From the NCBI RefSeq assembly GCF_000316665.1, contig NC_019678.1:1426001-1490000 (forward strand): a DNA stretch of 64,000 nucleotides, in the 5' to 3' direction. A program made the position numbers and the translations under genes. The notes beneath the pieces were generated by a model. That model was not told where the DNA came from. It did no database searches and was given only the letters and a program-made list of their open reading frames with translations. The DNA comes from Rivularia sp. PCC 7116 (GTDB lineage: Bacteria; Cyanobacteriota; Cyanobacteriia; Cyanobacteriales; Nostocaceae). Of this stretch, positions 27,224 through 33,863 are shown in pieces (the stretch's first letter is position 1; every line of letters begins with the position of its first letter).

Positions 27224-27454
27224 TCATGAAATAGCAATAGGTACTTCTACCTCTTCTGTACGCCATGCAGCGTAAGAAAGTGCTTCGTAAATATCCTCAG
27301 ATTCTAAATAGGGATAAGCTTTGAGGATATCTTCTGGAGTATGTCCGCAAGCCATCAAGCCAACAATTGTACCCACAGTGACGCGCATTCCTCGAATACA
27401 AGGTTTACCTCCCATTACTTCTGGGTTAAAGGTAATTCTAGTTAATGTTTTCAT
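27224..27454 (-). CDS. DUF433 antitoxin-like protein
   Basis: A 76-residue protein with the DUF433 signature: RITFNPEVMGGKPCIRGMRV, then TVGTIVGLMACGHTPEDILK and YPYLESEDIYEALSYAAW, a winged-helix DNA-binding fold. DUF433 proteins are usually antitoxins of a type II pair with a PIN-like DUF5615 toxin encoded immediately downstream. Here the downstream gene is DUF1993 instead, so it is an orphan or has been recruited as a regulator. Confidence 0.88.
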   Translation of the reverse strand: MKTLTRITFNPEVMGGKPCIRGMRVTVGTIVGLMACGHTPEDILKAYPYLESEDIYEALSYAAWRTEEVEVPIAIS

Positions 27455-27495: not shown

Positions 27496-30066
27496 TTAGT
27501 TTCCAACAGTTCCCCGAGTCACACCCAACTGACTTTGTAAATTCAATTCTCTCCACAATTGAGAACCTTTTATTTCACCATTAAGCAACTGTTGATATCT
27601 ATAAATTGTTTGCTCAACTTCTTCAGGCTTTTCATTGACAAATTCAATCCGAAAATTCTGCAAACCCAAATCCAAAAGCTTATGTACGTATTCCGCACCA
27701 GTTTGAGGAGTACCGTTAAATACTGTATTCCGACAACCAGCGTCGGCTTGTAAAACGTGTTCGGTTCCGACTCTATCTTTTATTTTTACCTCATATTCTT
27801 CGCAAGGTCTTCCACAATTGCGGAAGTCGGTACCTTCGGAAAGAAAAGCACAGAATACACAATGTTCCATATGAAACATCGGCATATGTTGGTGTATTGT
27901 CACCTCATACCAATCGGGAGGGGAGGTTTTTAATAAATCTTGGAGTTGATGAATATTTAAATCGTAAGATGCGGTGAGACGTTCTAAATGAAAGCGATTT
28001 TTGAAATAATCCGCTGTTAAGGAATTAGCAACATTTAACGAAAAATCCCCAATACATCTTTCATCCGCAAAGAATTTTAAATGGTCATAATTCCGAATCA
28101 AATAACCATCAGCATTAGAATTAATTACCTGCTGTAAAATCCAATTTTCAGAAGGTTTTGTAATTCTTGGAGGTGCAACAAATAGGAGGGGGGGATTGGG
28201 GGATGGGGAGAGGGGGGGAGAAGATTTTTTAACTGTTTCAACTGCTTCGCGATATTTTCTTGGGTCTTCAAATTCGCAATATATTGTTTTAATTTCAGTT
28301 TTTAATGCTGCTTCTAATTGATTTAAATTTCTAACTAAAACAATTAAGTTTGCAGAATCGGAAATTATAGAATTTGAATCAATAGAAGGAAGTAAATTTT
28401 TCAAAGAAGCATTTTCGTTAATGACCCATCTCTTAGGCTGACTTCTCAATTCTTCCAATTTCGTAACAATTTCCCGACGCATTTTATTTAATTCGCTGAC
28501 TGGCAACATCAATCCACCATTGATGCAATTTGTCACATCTTTTAAATAAAAAGGAGTATTACCCAAACGTCCGAATTGCTCTGTTAATCTTTCTGTTGTT
28601 AAAGGTTTATTATGCGCTTCTACTAATACAATCCCAGATTCAACCTTTACTAAATTGCCAATTTCATCGCGAGCAATTGCAATTAAATTTCCTTCAACTT
28701 CCCCATGTACTTCTATATCAATCGGACGCTGAAGCTTTGGTTTATCCCCTGCAAAACTTTGTCTTAACTGCTTATCCAGTTCCGGATCTGAAGTTTTCCA
28801 TAACTTGTCACCAACATGAATTCGTCGCCAATTTAAATTACCTTTCCCGAAGCTGAGTACAACATCCTTACCTTGATTTTCCACCCCATAAATTCTGCCA
28901 CCTTCCTCCTTAGCTTCCGGGTGTCCGCAATCAAACACCACACCATCACCGGGTTTAATAGGGATGGAGACGTTATGTATAACGTCTCTACATGATATTG
29001 TTACTTTTTCTTTGTTAATACTTTTAACTTCTCCTAAATAAACTCCACGCTTCTTACCAAACCGAGCGTGAACCAATTCTTGATTATTAATTCCCTCAAA
29101 CCATCCCGTATAAATTCCCCGAGAAAACGCCATTTCGAGATTGTATTTTTCTCGATCCCCCCAACCCCCCTTAAGAAGGGGGGCTTTTTTCTCCCCTTTC
29201 TTTTCCCCTCTTTTATAAGGGGGGCTAGGGGGGATCTCAACCTTTAACCCGTCCAATGCTTCGCGATAAACCTTAGTCACATTCGCAACATACTCCGGCG
29301 ACTTTAAACGTCCTTCAATCTTCAAACAACTAACGCCGGATTTTACTAAATCCGGTAGAACATCAAGCCCAGCCAAATCTTGAGGACTCAATAAATATTT
29401 GCGATCGCCTAAATTTATTGTTTCACCATCTGCTATTAACTCGTAGGTCATCCGGCAAGCTTGGGCACATTCACCACGGTTAGCGGAACGTCCTCCCAAA
29501 GCTTCGGAAGTTAGACATTGTCCGGAATAAGCAACACACAAAGCACCATGAACAAAAACTTCCAAGGGTAAGGAACTTTCTTGTGTCTGCTGCTGAATCT
29601 TATTAATTTCCTTAATCGAACATTCCCGAGCCAATACAACCAAATTACAACCAAGCTCCTTCGCAAACTCCACCCCAATCGCACTAGTTACCGTCATCTG
29701 CGTAGAAGTATGAATGGGAAAGTCGGGTGAAATGTGGCGAATTAAACGACAAATTCCGACATCTTGAACGATAACCGCATCAACCCCAGCAGCAATAATT
29801 GATTTTATGTAGCGCTGTGCTTGTTTTAATTCTTGGGGAAAAATCAAAGTATTGAGAGTAACGTAACCCTTAACTCCACGGAGGTGAAGAAACTGCATTA
29901 ATTCCGGTAAATCCGCTTCCGTGAAATTCTCCGCACGCATTCTAGCGTTGAACTTATCCAAACCAAAATAAATCGCATCAGCACCGTTTTCTACAGCAGC
30001 TTTCGCGCATTCCCAGTTACCAGCAGGAGCGAGAAGTTCGGGTATTTGTGGGGAGTTGGTTGTCAT
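27496..30066 (-). CDS. U32 family peptidase (YhbU/RlhA-like) with in-frame repeat insertions
   Basis: 856 residues. The N-terminal TIM barrel starts PELLAPAGNWECAKAAVENG and contains the U32 signature region HGALCVAYSGQCLTSEALGG with RGECAQACR (cluster-type cysteines). The C-terminal part has HMEHCVFCAF and NCGRPCEEY, more conserved cysteines. Relatives act in 23S rRNA hydroxylation or tRNA modification rather than proteolysis. Three stretches interrupt the domain: residues about 277-305 (Pro/Lys/Gly-rich), 360-367, and 614-628 (Ser/Pro-rich). Each corresponds to a dispersed DNA repeat that stays in frame. The start ATG matches the family. Monocistronic; MazF-type gene upstream on the same strand. 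Confidence 0.9.
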   Translation of the reverse strand: MTTNSPQIPELLAPAGNWECAKAAVENGADAIYFGLDKFNARMRAENFTEADLPELMQFLHLRGVKGYVTLNTLIFPQELKQAQRYIKSIIAAGVDAVIVQDVGICRLIRHISPDFPIHTSTQMTVTSAIGVEFAKELGCNLVVLARECSIKEINKIQQQTQESSLPLEVFVHGALCVAYSGQCLTSEALGGRSANRGECAQACRMTYELIADGETINLGDRKYLLSPQDLAGLDVLPDLVKSGVSCLKIEGRLKSPEYVANVTKVYREALDGLKVEIPPSPPYKRGEKKGEKKAPLLKGGWGDREKYNLEMAFSRGIYTGWFEGINNQELVHARFGKKRGVYLGEVKSINKEKVTISCRDVIHNVSIPIKPGDGVVFDCGHPEAKEEGGRIYGVENQGKDVVLSFGKGNLNWRRIHVGDKLWKTSDPELDKQLRQSFAGDKPKLQRPIDIEVHGEVEGNLIAIARDEIGNLVKVESGIVLVEAHNKPLTTERLTEQFGRLGNTPFYLKDVTNCINGGLMLPVSELNKMRREIVTKLEELRSQPKRWVINENASLKNLLPSIDSNSIISDSANLIVLVRNLNQLEAALKTEIKTIYCEFEDPRKYREAVETVKKSSPPLSPSPNPPLLFVAPPRITKPSENWILQQVINSNADGYLIRNYDHLKFFADERCIGDFSLNVANSLTADYFKNRFHLERLTASYDLNIHQLQDLLKTSPPDWYEVTIHQHMPMFHMEHCVFCAFLSEGTDFRNCGRPCEEYEVKIKDRVGTEHVLQADAGCRNTVFNGTPQTGAEYVHKLLDLGLQNFRIEFVNEKPEEVEQTIYRYQQLLNGEIKGSQLWRELNLQSQLGVTRGTVGN
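28184..28221. repeat. G-rich repeat inside U32 gene
   Basis: A purine-rich run of GGGGATTGGGGGATGGGGAG type encodes the Ser/Pro-rich stretch at residues 614-628 on the minus strand. Similar G-rich runs occur between genes elsewhere in the window. Confidence 0.5.
28967..28988. repeat. GAGACGTTAT palindrome inside U32 gene
   Basis: GAGACGTTAT and ATAACGTCTC, a perfect 10-bp palindrome with a 2-base centre, read in frame as part of the U32 protein. Degenerate relatives with GAGACGT/ACGTCTC lie near 25524, 44591, 48492 and 48940. Confidence 0.65.
29154..29236. repeat. GATCCCCCC...GGGGGGATC element inside U32 gene
   Basis: An 83-bp element with arms GATCCCCCCAACCCCCCTT and AAGGGGGGCTAGGGGGGATC, containing further C-rich and G-rich blocks. 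It is carried in frame by the U32 gene. A related copy lies at 61319-61387 inside a MITE. Confidence 0.75.
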
Positions 30067-30151
30067 AGCGGATTGGAAGCAGTTTGATTACACCATTGTG
30101 ATTGTAGCGTTGGTGGTGGGGAAAGAAACTTTGATTAAGTATTAAGTCATT

Positions 30152-30493
30152 TTAAACAATGCTTAAAACGATAGCTAATGCTTGTGAAACTAATTCCATT
30201 TGTGTATCTGAAAGTTTTCCCAACTGTTTGATTAATCTCGTTTCAGAAACAGAGCGAATTTGAAACGTATCAATCGCAGACACTTTTACCAAACTATTTT
30301 CAGTATTTGGTTCAACTTTAATCATCCAAGGACGAATTGCAAACCTTTCCTTCCAGTCGGTTATTGGTACAATTACCTTCAAAGGTAAAATACCGATGGC
30401 ATTATCATTTACTATGACACAAGGACGAGTTTTATTAATTTCCTTACCAATTGTTGGATCTAAATTAACTAACCAGATTTCACCTCTATTCAT
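30152..30493 (-). CDS. MazF/PemK-type toxin
   Basis: 113 residues from the ATG at 30493, which overlaps the antitoxin stop; an ATG 15 bases earlier is possible. The PemK/MazF fold signature is clear: MNRGEIWLVNLDPTIGKEI at the start, KTRPCVIVNDNAIGILPLKV and VIVPIT, then the C-terminal helix. Such toxins are sequence-specific endoribonucleases acting on mRNA. The eight-base overlap with the preceding small gene is typical of a type II toxin-antitoxin operon. Confidence 0.9.
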   Translation of the reverse strand: MNRGEIWLVNLDPTIGKEINKTRPCVIVNDNAIGILPLKVIVPITDWKERFAIRPWMIKVEPNTENSLVKVSAIDTFQIRSVSETRLIKQLGKLSDTQMELVSQALAIVLSIV

Positions 30494-30752
30494 GAGTATG
30501 CTTCTCAATTAACTCATTATCTGAATATTCGTAAAATTCTTCCCCATCAATAGCAGTAAAAATATTTAATTCTCCTTCTGGAGCATAATCAGCAATTGCT
30601 GTCATAGCAGCCAAAGCTAACTGGTGCTTTTGTTCTTCTTTTGTAAGTGAATCTTGTTCTTTGCTAATTAATAACAAAGCAGCTTCAGCTATTTGTAAGC
30701 GTTCGCTAATACTAAGGTTTGGCAGTACTTCGATGATTTGACTAGTTTCCAT
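30486..30752 (-). CDS. Probable antitoxin partner of MazF-type toxin
   Basis: 88 residues, acidic, helical (LSISERLQIAEAALLLI near the start) with an acidic C-terminal tail that would wrap the toxin. The stop overlaps the toxin start codon. No MazE-type DNA-binding fold is obvious, so the call rests mainly on position, size and charge; short cyanobacterial antitoxins of this kind beside MazF genes are common. Autoregulation is expected but no operator palindrome was identified in the 63-base upstream gap. Confidence 0.7.
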   Translation of the reverse strand: METSQIIEVLPNLSISERLQIAEAALLLISKEQDSLTKEEQKHQLALAAMTAIADYAPEGELNIFTAIDGEEFYEYSDNELIEKHTHE

Positions 30753-30815
30753 AGGTACTTGAAGAAGGTTTATTTTAATTATGAGTCAGGAAGGTAGAAG
30801 AAAAGAGACTATGAT

Positions 30816-32612
30816 TTAAGAAAATTTAAGAAAAAACTCTAAGTATCCTGCTGGTTCAACTTCTTCAACGTTTGCACCAATTCGCTGATAATACCTATTG
30901 TCATACATTACAGGAGCTTTACCACCCTTTATAGAAAATACTACAACATCTTTGCTGTAATAATTAACAATCTTAATGTTTGTGCCAATATTATCTTTTA
31001 CTGCTTGCTCAATAGGTTGAGATTTAACTTTTTGTATCAACCATTTGAAAAAATTATCAAGATTACCTTTAAGTCTCGTAGCTTCATGACCTATACCTGT
31101 AATTTTAAATTTATTGTATTCAACATTCTTAATAGAATATAAATTCTCTATTCTTTTCGCATCAGCTTCGTTATCAGCTACCCCAACACATATATATCCA
31201 ACTGCACTACAAGAATGATTAGCCATAGCAGTAAGAGTTTTGATTATCTTACTAAAACTAGCTTCATCGAATTCTCCTTTTCCATCTAATCTTGTAAAGC
31301 CTTGTTTGAAATCAAAAAGAGTTTGTTCTGTTTTAGATTGTGTTAATAGTGTTTCAAATTCAGTTAACCAACTATCAGTAGCAGGATCTGCCTGTTTCTT
31401 CTTTTTAAATGCATCTTTTATAATGCCTATAACCGCACTTATATTAGTATTTTTGTTTTTCGCACTCCAGTTACCTCCTGTTGTTATTGTAATATGTTGA
31501 CCTATATTTTTTAATTTTGATACAAGTATTTTATAGCTCTTTACTTCCATATTTTCTTTAAACATCAAATCATGAATACTTAAAAAAACTATTTGAAAAT
31601 AGCGAGGCATACTTTGCAGTGGTCGTGGAAATATCAATTCACTAAATCTACACTTCGATTCATCTAGAATCTGACGTATTTGGTCATATACCTTTAAAAA
31701 TCTTTCTCTAATTTTTTCCGGATTAATTTTTTGGAGTGCTATTTCAATTTCTTCTTGTTTTGAGCTTCCTTTTACTCCATAAAATTCATCTAATCTTTCG
31801 GAACTGCTTCCTGTGACTTCTGGTAATGCCATATAAGCAACTAAATCTGCGACTATTTCTTCATCGTTAGACTCTCTAAACTTTTCTTTTGTTAAAACAT
31901 TATTTACAACCCAAAAAATATCATCAATCTTGATTCCATATTCAAGGTCTTTATTCGTTATACTTATTAATTTCATATCATTTAAAAGTAGTATATCCGA
32001 AGCTGAGATATCTGTTCTTATTTCACTAGATATTTTTCTAACTAGTTCAGGAAAATAAGCTGTTGCCCCAGAAGTTCTTAGTTCTTGTCTAGACAAATAT
32101 TTACCATTTGAATTAATTCTTCTGAATACTTCATCAATTTTATCTTCATCATTAAATGAATAAACTGAAAGCGGCATTACATAACTAGCTATAACTTCAC
32201 ATACACTTCGTTCTAGTATTGGTGTTTTTTGATTAACTATTCCTTGATCAAAACAAGATTTAGACTCGACCATTGTTGCTAGATCAAAAAACTTACCATC
32301 AATTTCAAATTCACCTTCTATAAAAGATGTTATTGCATTTAACCTTTGCATTCCATCTATAATTTCAAAGACAGATTTACCTTCTTTATCTGTTTGGGCT
32401 AATAATATTATTGGTACAGGGAAACCTTGTAGTATTGAGTCAATAAATGCTCTCTTTTCCTCAATTGTCCAGACTAATTTTCTCTGATATCTTCTGTTAA
32501 CGTAAAAAATATTATTAATATAAAAGTTATAAATTCGTTGTATAGGTTCGCTTCTGATAGAAAGCTCTTTTTGGACAGAAGACGGAGAAAATTGAACTGA
32601 AGAATTCGACAT
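30816..32612 (-). CDS. DUF262 protein with C-terminal AlbA_2/Schlafen-like domain
   Basis: 598 residues. The N-terminal ParB-like DUF262 domain has RYQRKLVWT (41-49), the nucleotide-associated DGxQR motif as DGMQR (86-90) and VFRRINSNGKYLSRQELR (about 164-181). The C-terminal 170 residues begin EQTLFDFKQGFTRLD (near 430) and contain GYICVGVADNEADAKRI, as in the AlbA_2/Schlafen nucleic-acid domain. DUF262 domains are NTP-dependent DNases in GmrSD and SspE restriction systems; AlbA_2 domains are nucleic-acid binding or RNase-like. Anti-phage defence is inferred. It sits just upstream of the MazF-type pair on the same strand, 63 bases apart. Confidence 0.82.
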   Translation of the reverse strand: MSNSSVQFSPSSVQKELSIRSEPIQRIYNFYINNIFYVNRRYQRKLVWTIEEKRAFIDSILQGFPVPIILLAQTDKEGKSVFEIIDGMQRLNAITSFIEGEFEIDGKFFDLATMVESKSCFDQGIVNQKTPILERSVCEVIASYVMPLSVYSFNDEDKIDEVFRRINSNGKYLSRQELRTSGATAYFPELVRKISSEIRTDISASDILLLNDMKLISITNKDLEYGIKIDDIFWVVNNVLTKEKFRESNDEEIVADLVAYMALPEVTGSSSERLDEFYGVKGSSKQEEIEIALQKINPEKIRERFLKVYDQIRQILDESKCRFSELIFPRPLQSMPRYFQIVFLSIHDLMFKENMEVKSYKILVSKLKNIGQHITITTGGNWSAKNKNTNISAVIGIIKDAFKKKKQADPATDSWLTEFETLLTQSKTEQTLFDFKQGFTRLDGKGEFDEASFSKIIKTLTAMANHSCSAVGYICVGVADNEADAKRIENLYSIKNVEYNKFKITGIGHEATRLKGNLDNFFKWLIQKVKSQPIEQAVKDNIGTNIKIVNYYSKDVVVFSIKGGKAPVMYDNRYYQRIGANVEEVEPAGYLEFFLKFS

Positions 32613-32720
32613 GATTGAAATTTTACATAATAGTATTTACATAGAATATATATTAGCTAAGTAAGTTAAACAAGTTGGGTAAAATAGAAGACAATCCAAA
32701 ATCCAACATCCAAATCCCCC

Positions 32721-33863
32721 TCACTCCCACAATCTCCTCCCTTCTTTCCCCTTCAATCTCTCATGGGTATCTTTCAACAAAGCGGGAATATCCAACTCCT
32801 CGGGACACTTGGGTAAACATTCCCCGCATTCGGTACAGCGACTACCCTTCATTCCCGGAAACCAATGTCCGGCATTTTCAAACATTCCGTAGCGATATTT
32901 CCCGTAATCTTCCATCTCATAAGCAACTGCTAAATTCCGCAGTCGCAATACTTCGGGAATGTTAATATTTTCGGGGCAGGGTAAGCATTCATAACACTGA
33001 CTGCATTTTTCAGCGTCTAAAACTGTATTTTGATGCTTTTCTAATTTTTCAAATACCGAAATTTCTTCTAAAGTTAATTCCCCGTCGTTATTGGCAACTT
33101 TTAACGGTTCAATTAATTCTTCAGGATTCGCAGCACCGATACTCAATGTTGTTACGCGCTTGTCACTGAGTAAAAAACGATAATTTAATTCTAAGGGAGA
33201 AAACGGATAAGTTAATTCTTCTAATTTTTCTGGTGGTGTATATAATCTTCCTCCTTTGTCGGCAGGAGAAATTATAAAAATACCCATGTCTTTTTCTGCT
33301 GCTAACTTAACCGCAGCAGCATTACGCTGAAAAAAATAGTAATAATGCAGATTGATAAATTCAAAAAAATCTGTGTTTATCGCTGCCAAGATTATTTCTA
33401 AGGGCGCATGAGTAGAAAAACCGACGTGACGTACTCTACCGTACTCTACTGCTTCCCGTACTGCTTGCATACAGCCATTTTCAGCCCGTACCCACTCAAG
33501 ATGCTGCCATGTATTTAAACCATGAATACCCAAGCAATCAAGATAATCTAGCTGCAATCTTTCTAAAGATTCATCGATGCACCGACGCATGGTATCAGCA
33601 TCAACTGTGGGTGGAATTTTACTAGTGATATGCAGTTGGTTGCGGGATACAGACAATCGGGCTTTTAACGCTTCACCCAAATACTCCTCACTTTTACCAT
33701 AACCACTAGCAGTTTCTATATGATTAATTCCCTGTGCTACTGCTTCATTAATAGTTCTTCTTGCATTTACAGGTGAAGCCAGATAGCGCATCGTTCCCAA
33801 GGAAAACACTGATAAACGTAGATTTGTTTTCCCGAAGCGTCGGTATTGCATCTTTTGTATCAA
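32721..33863 (-). CDS. Aldo/keto reductase with C-terminal ferredoxin-type domain
   Basis: 380 residues. The N-terminal TIM barrel is an aldo/keto reductase: MQYRRFGKTNLRLSVFSLGTM at the start, INHIETASGYGKSEEYLGEA with the catalytic Asp/Tyr region, and LDYLDCLGIHGL. After residue 280 come two 4Fe-4S-like cysteine groups, CSQCYECLPCPENINIP and CTECGECLPKCPEELDIP. This fusion is widespread in bacteria as a predicted oxidoreductase; the electron partner and substrate are unknown. Start at the ATG just after an STRR heptamer array. Confidence 0.9.
   Translation of the reverse strand: MIQKMQYRRFGKTNLRLSVFSLGTMRYLASPVNARRTINEAVAQGINHIETASGYGKSEEYLGEALKARLSVSRNQLHITSKIPPTVDADTMRRCIDESLERLQLDYLDCLGIHGLNTWQHLEWVRAENGCMQAVREAVEYGRVRHVGFSTHAPLEIILAAINTDFFEFINLHYYYFFQRNAAAVKLAAEKDMGIFIISPADKGGRLYTPPEKLEELTYPFSPLELNYRFLLSDKRVTTLSIGAANPEELIEPLKVANNDGELTLEEISVFEKLEKHQNTVLDAEKCSQCYECLPCPENINIPEVLRLRNLAVAYEMEDYGKYRYGMFENAGHWFPGMKGSRCTECGECLPKCPEELDIPALLKDTHERLKGKEGRRLWE

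What the first reader, a model, noticed from the sequence alone, without database searches (positions are those of the whole stretch)
30152..32612. DUF262-AlbA_2-like protein next to a MazF-type pair: possible small defence cluster
The 598-aa protein joins a DUF262 nuclease-type N-terminus (DGMQR, variant of DGQQR) to an AlbA_2/Schlafen-like C-terminus, and lies 63 bases upstream of an overlapping toxin-antitoxin pair on the same strand. DUF262 proteins work in type IV-like restriction (GmrSD, SspE). A single-gene fusion coupled to a toxin would be a distinct architecture.
Basis: partly seen in the sequence, partly recalled or inferred. Interest (0 to 1): 0.62.

Follow-up and report, generated by a model that had tools for sequence, protein, structure and literature searches.

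The report
Restriction-type sensor fused to Schlafen RNase
A cyanobacterial gene joins the sensor half of a virus-DNA restriction enzyme to an RNA-cutting domain like those of human antiviral Schlafen/SAMD9 proteins; it belongs to a large, apparently unnamed bacterial family that sits in known virus-defence sites, and the toxin pair beside it is a chance neighbour.

Summary
Observation confirmed. The 598-aa gene (30816-32612, -) encodes a DUF262 (ParB/Srx-type NTPase) domain, a helical linker and a Schlafen/AlbA_2 domain. It lies 63 bp upstream of an intact antitoxin/MazF pair. Pfam and an AlphaFold2 model (pLDDT 88.7) support both domains: residues 17-400 superpose on BrxU, 416-598 on the SAMD9 tRNase and Schlafens. 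Across 101 homologues the DUF262 motifs are invariant and the Schlafen acidic triad is kept almost without exception.

Defence is well supported: in congeners the gene's chromosomal slot carries a canonical GmrSD enzyme, a type II restriction-modification pair, or little; homologues occupy the gpA-gpQ (old/tin) defence hotspot of P2-like prophages. The toxin coupling is not supported: fusion and TA pair occur separately in relatives, and MazF is nearly absent beside other homologues.

The architecture is not unique: at least 293 loci across bacterial phyla, including E. coli IncF plasmids, where IS1 often splits the gene. No paper I could read describes it; a 2025 preprint on bacterial Schlafens could not be read.

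Best model: nucleotide-regulated foreign-DNA sensing by DUF262 switches on a Schlafen-type tRNase (abortive infection). Trigger, RNA target and phage protection are inferred. New variant of a known kind.

The parts
30816..32612 (-). DUF262-linker-AlbA_2/Schlafen fusion, 598 aa, intact
32073..32537 (-). DUF262/GmrSD_N (ParB/Srx-fold NTPase-type) domain, residues 26-180
   Evidence: Pfam E 2.7e-24; fold match to BrxU, SspE, ParB
32343..32357 (-). DGMQR motif (residues 86-90), nucleotide-pocket motif; D, G, Q, R invariant in 101 sequences
32112..32126 (-). FxxxN motif (residues 163-167), F and N invariant
   Evidence: motif named for GrwAB/GmrSD in PMC12137116
31368..32072 (-). helical linker region (residues 181-415); the BrxU match spans model residues 17-400
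30858..31328 (-). SLFN_AlbA_2 domain (residues 429-585)
   Evidence: Pfam E 6.8e-10; VIA-align Z 10.7 and 10.2 to SAMD9, 7-8 to Schlafens
31326..31328 (-). E429, putative first acidic residue of the Schlafen triad (101/101)
   Evidence: compare SLFN13 E205
31311..31313 (-). D434, putative second acidic residue (D 72, E 29 of 101)
   Evidence: compare SLFN13 E210
31173..31175 (-). D480, putative third acidic residue (D 95, E 5, N 1 of 101)
   Evidence: compare SLFN13 D248
30486..30752 (-). antitoxin ORF, 88 aa, no Pfam family; homologues lie directly upstream of MazF homologues elsewhere
30152..30493 (-). PemK/MazF toxin, 113 aa from the ATG at 30493 (118 aa from TTG 30508)
30067..32720 (.). 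variable slot between the U32 peptidase and aldo/keto reductase genes; swaps GmrSD, RM, Uma2+TA or nearly nothing in congeners
27496..30066 (-). flanking anchor: U32 peptidase, conserved in relatives
32721..33863 (-). flanking anchor: aldo/keto reductase with 4Fe-4S domain

Best explanation
The gene is a stand-alone, single-protein anti-phage defence gene. Its N-terminal DUF262 domain and helical linker are the NTP-regulated sensor module known from type IV restriction enzymes (BrxU, GmrSD, SspE). The DNA-cutting His-Me nuclease is replaced by a Schlafen/SAMD9-type RNase domain. Proposed action: DUF262 recognises a feature of invading DNA (most likely a base modification) in a nucleotide-dependent way; the change is passed through the linker and activates the AlbA_2 domain; this cleaves tRNA (or another structured RNA) with E429, D434 and D480; translation stops and the infection aborts. 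Shown: the domains, conserved active-site-like residues in both halves, the predicted fold, pan-bacterial conservation as one gene, and residence in slots that exchange restriction or defence genes. Inferred: DNA as trigger, tRNA as target, abortive outcome, phage protection. The MazF pair downstream is an independent TA module that shares the slot.
For: Both domains by Pfam in window, P2, plasmid, Firmicute and actinobacterial homologues (in the P2 homologue L147 AlbA_2 is below cut-off). 101-sequence alignment: Q43, R44, D86, G87, Q89, R90, F163, N167, E429, K436 invariant; D/E434 in all; D/E480 in 100 of 101. Model pLDDT 88.7, pTM 0.84. Fold: residues 17-400 on BrxU Z 8.8, SspE Z 8.0; 416-598 on SAMD9 tRNase Z 10.2, SAMD9 DBD 10.7, SLFN14 7.9, SLFN13 7.2. 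SLFN13 uses the E205/E210/D248 triad and SAMD9L the E186/E198/D243 triad. Same-slot swap with a canonical DUF262-DUF1524 GmrSD (G006), a D12 methylase + SacI-like REase pair (G004) and Uma2+TA (G002). P2-like prophages: next to portal gpQ in 10 viral contigs, with gpA on the other side in 9, the published defence hotspot (PMC9122126); also in another P2-like prophage in a tail-gene gap. IncF plasmids; a Lactiplantibacillus copy follows dcm, PLD-REase and Z1 genes.
Against: No assay. No recurrent second gene or modification enzyme is linked, so the self/non-self rule is unknown. PADLOC tallies show only a modest excess of defence families in near neighbours over distant genes (138 against 69 family models, mostly one protein each), and many copies sit beside housekeeping genes. 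TM-scores over the whole chain are low because single domains align. DUF262 could sense something other than modified DNA. AlbA_2 domains also bind DNA.
Confidence: 0.62

Rival explanations
1. A two-part defence cluster: the fusion and the MazEF pair work together, e.g. the fusion senses phage and frees or guards the toxin.
For: Same strand, 63 bp apart. On IncF plasmids of E. coli a relative lies about 285 bp downstream of pemIK, also a MazF-family pair, so the neighbourhood recurs, in the opposite order. A Clostridia MAG (L100) has a MazF homologue two genes away on the other strand.
Against: MazF is near the fusion in only 3 other loci of 131 surveyed, one of them the same locus in a congener; a rough estimate from MazF density gives about 0.4 by chance. 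Window-type antitoxin-MazF pairs occur alone in 10 other genomes. G025 and G029 carry both genes, unlinked. G005 keeps an intact TA after losing two thirds of the fusion; G002 has TA remnants and no fusion at the slot; G015 has a fusion remnant and no TA.
Confidence: 0.06
2. A modification-dependent DNA restriction or nicking enzyme in which AlbA_2 acts as a DNA-binding or DNA-cutting domain, so that it works like BrxU and not by RNA cleavage.
For: N-terminal sensor and linker match BrxU; a true GmrSD occupies the same slot in G006. AlbA_2 of SAMD9 was solved bound to DNA (7ksp).
Against: No DUF1524/GmrSD_C match, although the same search finds it in the G006 enzyme. The conserved acidic triad is that of Schlafen RNases.
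Confidence: 0.22
3. A non-defence regulator or stress protein: an AlbA_2 nucleic-acid binder with a ParB-like domain, carried by mobile elements for their own maintenance.
For: Plasmid copies lie near pemIK and parM; no phage phenotype is known.
Against: Patchy presence (10 of 386 cyanobacterial genomes), slot exchange with restriction genes and the P2 old/tin hotspot position fit defence cargo better.
Confidence: 0.1

Closest known systems
BrxU / GmrSD type IV restriction enzymes (DUF262 + DUF1524)
   Same: DUF262 with QR, DGxQR and FxxxN motifs plus a helical linker; single chain; BrxU match over model residues 17-400; a canonical member takes the same slot in G006
   Different: DUF1524 His-Me nuclease absent, AlbA_2 in its place; motif is DG[M/L]QR and not DGQQR
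SspE (phosphorothioate-sensing DUF262-DUF1524 effector)
   Same: N-terminal fold match Z 8.0; NTP-regulated effector logic
   Different: No DUF1524, and no conserved neighbour family was found that could be sspABCD
Schlafen and SAMD9/SAMD9L RNase domains (vertebrate antiviral proteins)
   Same: C-terminal domain fold (Z 7-11) and acidic triad at the expected spacing E-x4-D/E...D/E
   Different: Fused behind a bacterial restriction-type sensor; single AlbA_2 unit per chain
Bacterial Schlafen defence proteins (Taboada et al. 2025 preprint, cited in PMC12839542)
   Same: Prokaryotic Schlafen RNase as anti-phage effector
   Different: PMC12839542 names Schlafen fused to a histidine-kinase-like module and wHTH; whether the preprint covers DUF262 fusions could not be read
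ptuXYZ, HEPN-ParB(DUF262)-HNH fusions and CoCoNuTs
   Same: Other cases that join DUF262 or type IV-like modules to RNases (PMC11980606; PMC3710099; PMC11090510, title and abstract only)
   Different: Different RNase folds (BECR, HEPN, CoCoNuT nucleases); ptuXYZ has three genes

Membership tests
GmrSD-type (type IV) restriction enzyme | DUF262 domain with QR, DGxQR and FxxxN motifs | tested here: met
   (third motif position M/L and not Q)
GmrSD-type (type IV) restriction enzyme | C-terminal DUF1524 (GmrSD_C) His-Me/HNH nuclease | tested here: not met
   No PF07510 match at E 0.1; the positive control L228 matches at 2.2e-20
GmrSD-type (type IV) restriction enzyme | Cleaves modified DNA | not testable with these tools
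   Needs an enzyme assay
Schlafen/AlbA_2 RNase | PF04326 domain above gathering score | tested here: met
   40 bits against 25.3; also above cut-off in four of five homologues tested
Schlafen/AlbA_2 RNase | Three conserved acidic active-site residues | tested here: met
   E429 101/101, D/E434 101/101, D/E480 100/101; assignment to SLFN13 E205/E210/D248 by motif and Pfam register, not by superposed coordinates
Schlafen/AlbA_2 RNase | Schlafen/SAMD9 fold | tested here: met
   VIA-align Z 10.7 and 10.2 (SAMD9), 7-8 (SLFN5, 11, 13, 14)
Schlafen/AlbA_2 RNase | Endoribonuclease activity on tRNA/rRNA | not testable with these tools
   Needs an assay
Fusion + MazEF as one system | Conserved co-occurrence of fusion and MazF pair | tested here: not met
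PADLOC systems NsnA, PD-T4-2, HEC-05 | Full-length match to the system's protein | tested here: not met
   Only the N-terminal part aligns (e.g. NsnA over residues 20-322, E 1.7e-22; PD-T4-2_A 27-196)
PADLOC systems NsnA, PD-T4-2, HEC-05 | Partner genes of the multi-gene systems | not tested
   Not searched one by one; no recurrent neighbour family was seen outside prophage genes
P2 gpA-gpQ hotspot cargo | Gene lies between gpA and portal gpQ in P2-like prophages | tested here: met
   Portal family at +1 or +2 in 10 viral loci, gpA family upstream in 9; phrog_68 portal and phrog_91 nicking protein in L147. True of homologues, not of the window copy
Type II toxin-antitoxin pair (MazF/PemK) | MazF-family toxin with an overlapping upstream antitoxin ORF | tested here: met

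The most novel reading that the evidence does not exclude
A pan-bacterial, unnamed one-protein immune system in which a type IV restriction-style sensor of foreign (probably modified) DNA directly controls a Schlafen/SAMD9-type tRNase, so that DNA recognition leads to translation shut-off and not DNA cleavage.
Probability: 0.4. Interest if true: 0.75.

Novelty: new variant of a known kind. Interest (0 to 1): 0.55.

Why it matters
If the model holds, the GmrSD-type sensor is modular and can drive RNA-level suicide as well as DNA cutting. It would give a bacterial form of the Schlafen/SAMD9 antiviral strategy under a well-studied DNA sensor. Versions already sit in E. coli P2-like prophages and on IncF plasmids, so the idea can be tested at once in laboratory strains. 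On many IncF resistance plasmids the gene is split by IS1, so the resistance plasmid may have lost a defence gene.

Tried and rejected
Toxin coupling: rejected on distribution. Viral contigs with the window protein alone found nothing; the alignment query found 36 loci. In the phage collection no record covers 80% of the query; the listed rows cover only the DUF262 half. PDB by sequence gave only a weak BrxU hit, and a probably spurious photoreceptor hit at 0.001. NCBIfam has no family for the fusion. PADLOC neighbour tallies were too sparse to prove a defence-island link. Promoter and terminator scan no better than shuffles. The 2025 preprint on bacterial Schlafens is not held. Literature searches for DUF262 with Schlafen or AlbA found no description of the fusion. 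One structure search used wrong coordinates and was not repeated.

Full report
WHAT IS THERE. The ORF 30816-32612 on the minus strand encodes 598 residues. Pfam gives GmrSD_N (DUF262) at 26-180 (E 2.7e-24) and SLFN_AlbA_2 at 429-585 (E 6.8e-10), both above the curated cut-off. Sixty-three bases downstream lies an 88-aa ORF with no family and, overlapping it, a PemK/MazF toxin (E 9.8e-27). The better toxin start is the ATG at 30493, which overlaps the antitoxin stop. One correction: DUF262 is the ParB/Srx-fold, nucleotide-binding part of the GmrSD enzymes; their nuclease is DUF1524 (PMC10952713), which this protein lacks.

FAMILY. Homologues were sought in whole genomes, plasmids, phages, GTDB genome contigs and viral contigs. 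The genome-contig scan found 293 related loci and kept 80. Nearly all the kept ORFs are single genes of about 590-620 aa with the same architecture, from Cyanobacteriota, Pseudomonadota, Bacillota, Bacteroidota, Actinomycetota, Myxococcota, Spirochaetota and Acidobacteriota. The tree groups mostly by phylum, with some mixing; the window falls in a cyanobacterial clade (SH-aLRT 99). Presence is patchy: 10 of 386 cyanobacterial genomes at a strict cut-off.

CONSERVATION AND FOLD. In 101 aligned sequences, Q43, R44, D86, G87, Q89, R90, F163 and N167 are invariant. These are the three DUF262 motifs named for GrwAB and GmrSD (PMC12137116). Position 88 is always M or L. In the C-terminal domain E429 and K436 are invariant, 434 is always D or E, and 480 is D or E in 100 of 101. 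This fits the three-acid Schlafen active site, E205/E210/D248 in SLFN13 (PMC5862951) and E186/E198/D243 in SAMD9L (PMC11221667). The assignment rests on motif and Pfam register; I had no coordinates to superpose. The AlphaFold2 model has pLDDT 88.7 and pTM 0.84. VIA-align puts residues 17-400 on BrxU (Z 8.8, rmsd 12, so a hinge between sub-domains is likely) and 11-171 on SspE (Z 8.0); it puts 416-598 on the SAMD9 tRNase domain (Z 10.2), SAMD9 bound to DNA (10.7), DIP2311 (11.2) and Schlafens (7-8). So the protein looks like BrxU with its nuclease replaced by a SAMD9/Schlafen domain.

THE CHROMOSOMAL SLOT. The fusion and the TA pair lie between a U32 peptidase and an aldo/keto reductase. I compared this site in congeners and relatives. 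In G005 the TA is intact, but bases corresponding to 31340-32652 are deleted, leaving only the AlbA_2 end of the fusion. In G006 the slot holds a 572-aa canonical GmrSD enzyme with both GmrSD_N and GmrSD_C. In G004 it holds a D12-class adenine methylase and a SacI-like nuclease; the latter is just under Pfam's cut-off. In G002 it holds a Uma2 protein, the antitoxin and a MazF broken by an internal deletion. In G007 it is nearly empty, with a 3' scar of the toxin. In G015 a C-terminal remnant of the fusion stands beside the peptidase with no TA. The site therefore exchanges restriction and TA genes. The fusion and the TA come and go independently; the G002 similarity starts just after the fusion's stop codon, so the TA carries its own leader.

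TOXIN COUPLING. In 131 loci with the fusion, a MazF homologue was found only in G005 (same locus), an IncF plasmid and one Clostridia MAG. MazF homologues with a window-type antitoxin occur in ten other genomes without the fusion. G025 and G029 have both genes far apart. The IncF case deserves mention: there the fusion follows pemIK by 285 bp, in the opposite order to the window. I regard coupling as unlikely.

DEFENCE CONTEXT ELSEWHERE. In ten viral contigs the fusion is next to the portal gene of P2-like prophages, and in nine the gpA homologue lies on the other side. Rousset et al. showed that this gpA-gpQ region is a hotspot of anti-phage systems, with old and tin in P2 itself (PMC9122126). 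In E. coli KE47 another version sits in a P2-like prophage between the baseplate V and tail-completion genes, on the opposite strand; 28 of 5,426 complete E. coli genomes carry that version and 17 carry the gpA-gpQ version at 80% coverage or more. A Lactiplantibacillus plasmid copy follows a cytosine methylase, a PLD-type nuclease and a Z1 protein; a Klebsiella plasmid copy lies near TIR and Lit-like genes. A PADLOC tally of near against distant neighbours gave 138 against 69 matching models, mostly one protein each: suggestive only.

MECHANISM. Known GmrSD-family proteins use DUF262 to sense DNA modification and to regulate a C-terminal nuclease through nucleotide binding and hydrolysis. Schlafen and SAMD9-type domains cleave tRNA or block translation, and prokaryotic Schlafens have been proposed to do so in abortive infection (PMC12839542). 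Joining these, the simplest reading is a sensor-effector protein that answers foreign DNA with RNA cleavage. Architecture, conservation and context are shown; trigger, target and outcome are inferred. I give 0.62 to the whole model, about 0.85 to defence of some kind, and about 0.7 to RNA as the effector target.

NOVELTY. It fails membership in the GmrSD family, since DUF1524 is absent. It meets the sequence and fold criteria for an AlbA_2/Schlafen domain protein. PADLOC 2023 models match only its N-terminal part, NCBIfam has none, and the PHROG for the P2 version has unknown function. No paper in the library describes the fusion, but the library lacks most preprints, and the key Schlafen preprint could not be read. 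Related combinations of DUF262 with other RNases are published. Hence: new variant of a known kind.

Noticed in passing
L051 5923-7233; L242 3995-4498; NZ_MK092064 (L241): On IncF plasmids of E. coli the fusion gene is usually split: 803 of 5,426 genomes have a match but only 105 a near full-length copy. In L051 the gene stops at nt 1284 exactly where an IS1 end begins (7207), and the two halves overlap by 9 bp (1276-1284), as expected of an IS1 target duplication.
   Followed up: partly
window 30067-32720; L228, L238, L240, L239, L044: The interval between the U32 peptidase and aldo/keto reductase genes is a small exchange site for restriction and TA genes in this genus.
   Followed up: yes
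window 29150-29240: The U32 peptidase gene carries an in-frame stretch of about 90 bp that is absent in several congeners and related to a dispersed repeat with 22 other partial matches in the genome.
   Followed up: partly
L043 8631-10408; L070; L158; L162: Some homologues are broken into two ORFs, which suggests frequent decay or frameshifts in this family.
   Followed up: no
NZ_CP026085.1 3130217-3131998: A record titled E. coli DH5alpha carries the P2-type fusion, which is odd for that laboratory strain and may be a mislabelled or lysogenised isolate.
   Followed up: no
window 27224-27454: A DUF433 protein (often antitoxin-like) stands alone near the slot without an obvious partner toxin.
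   Followed up: no
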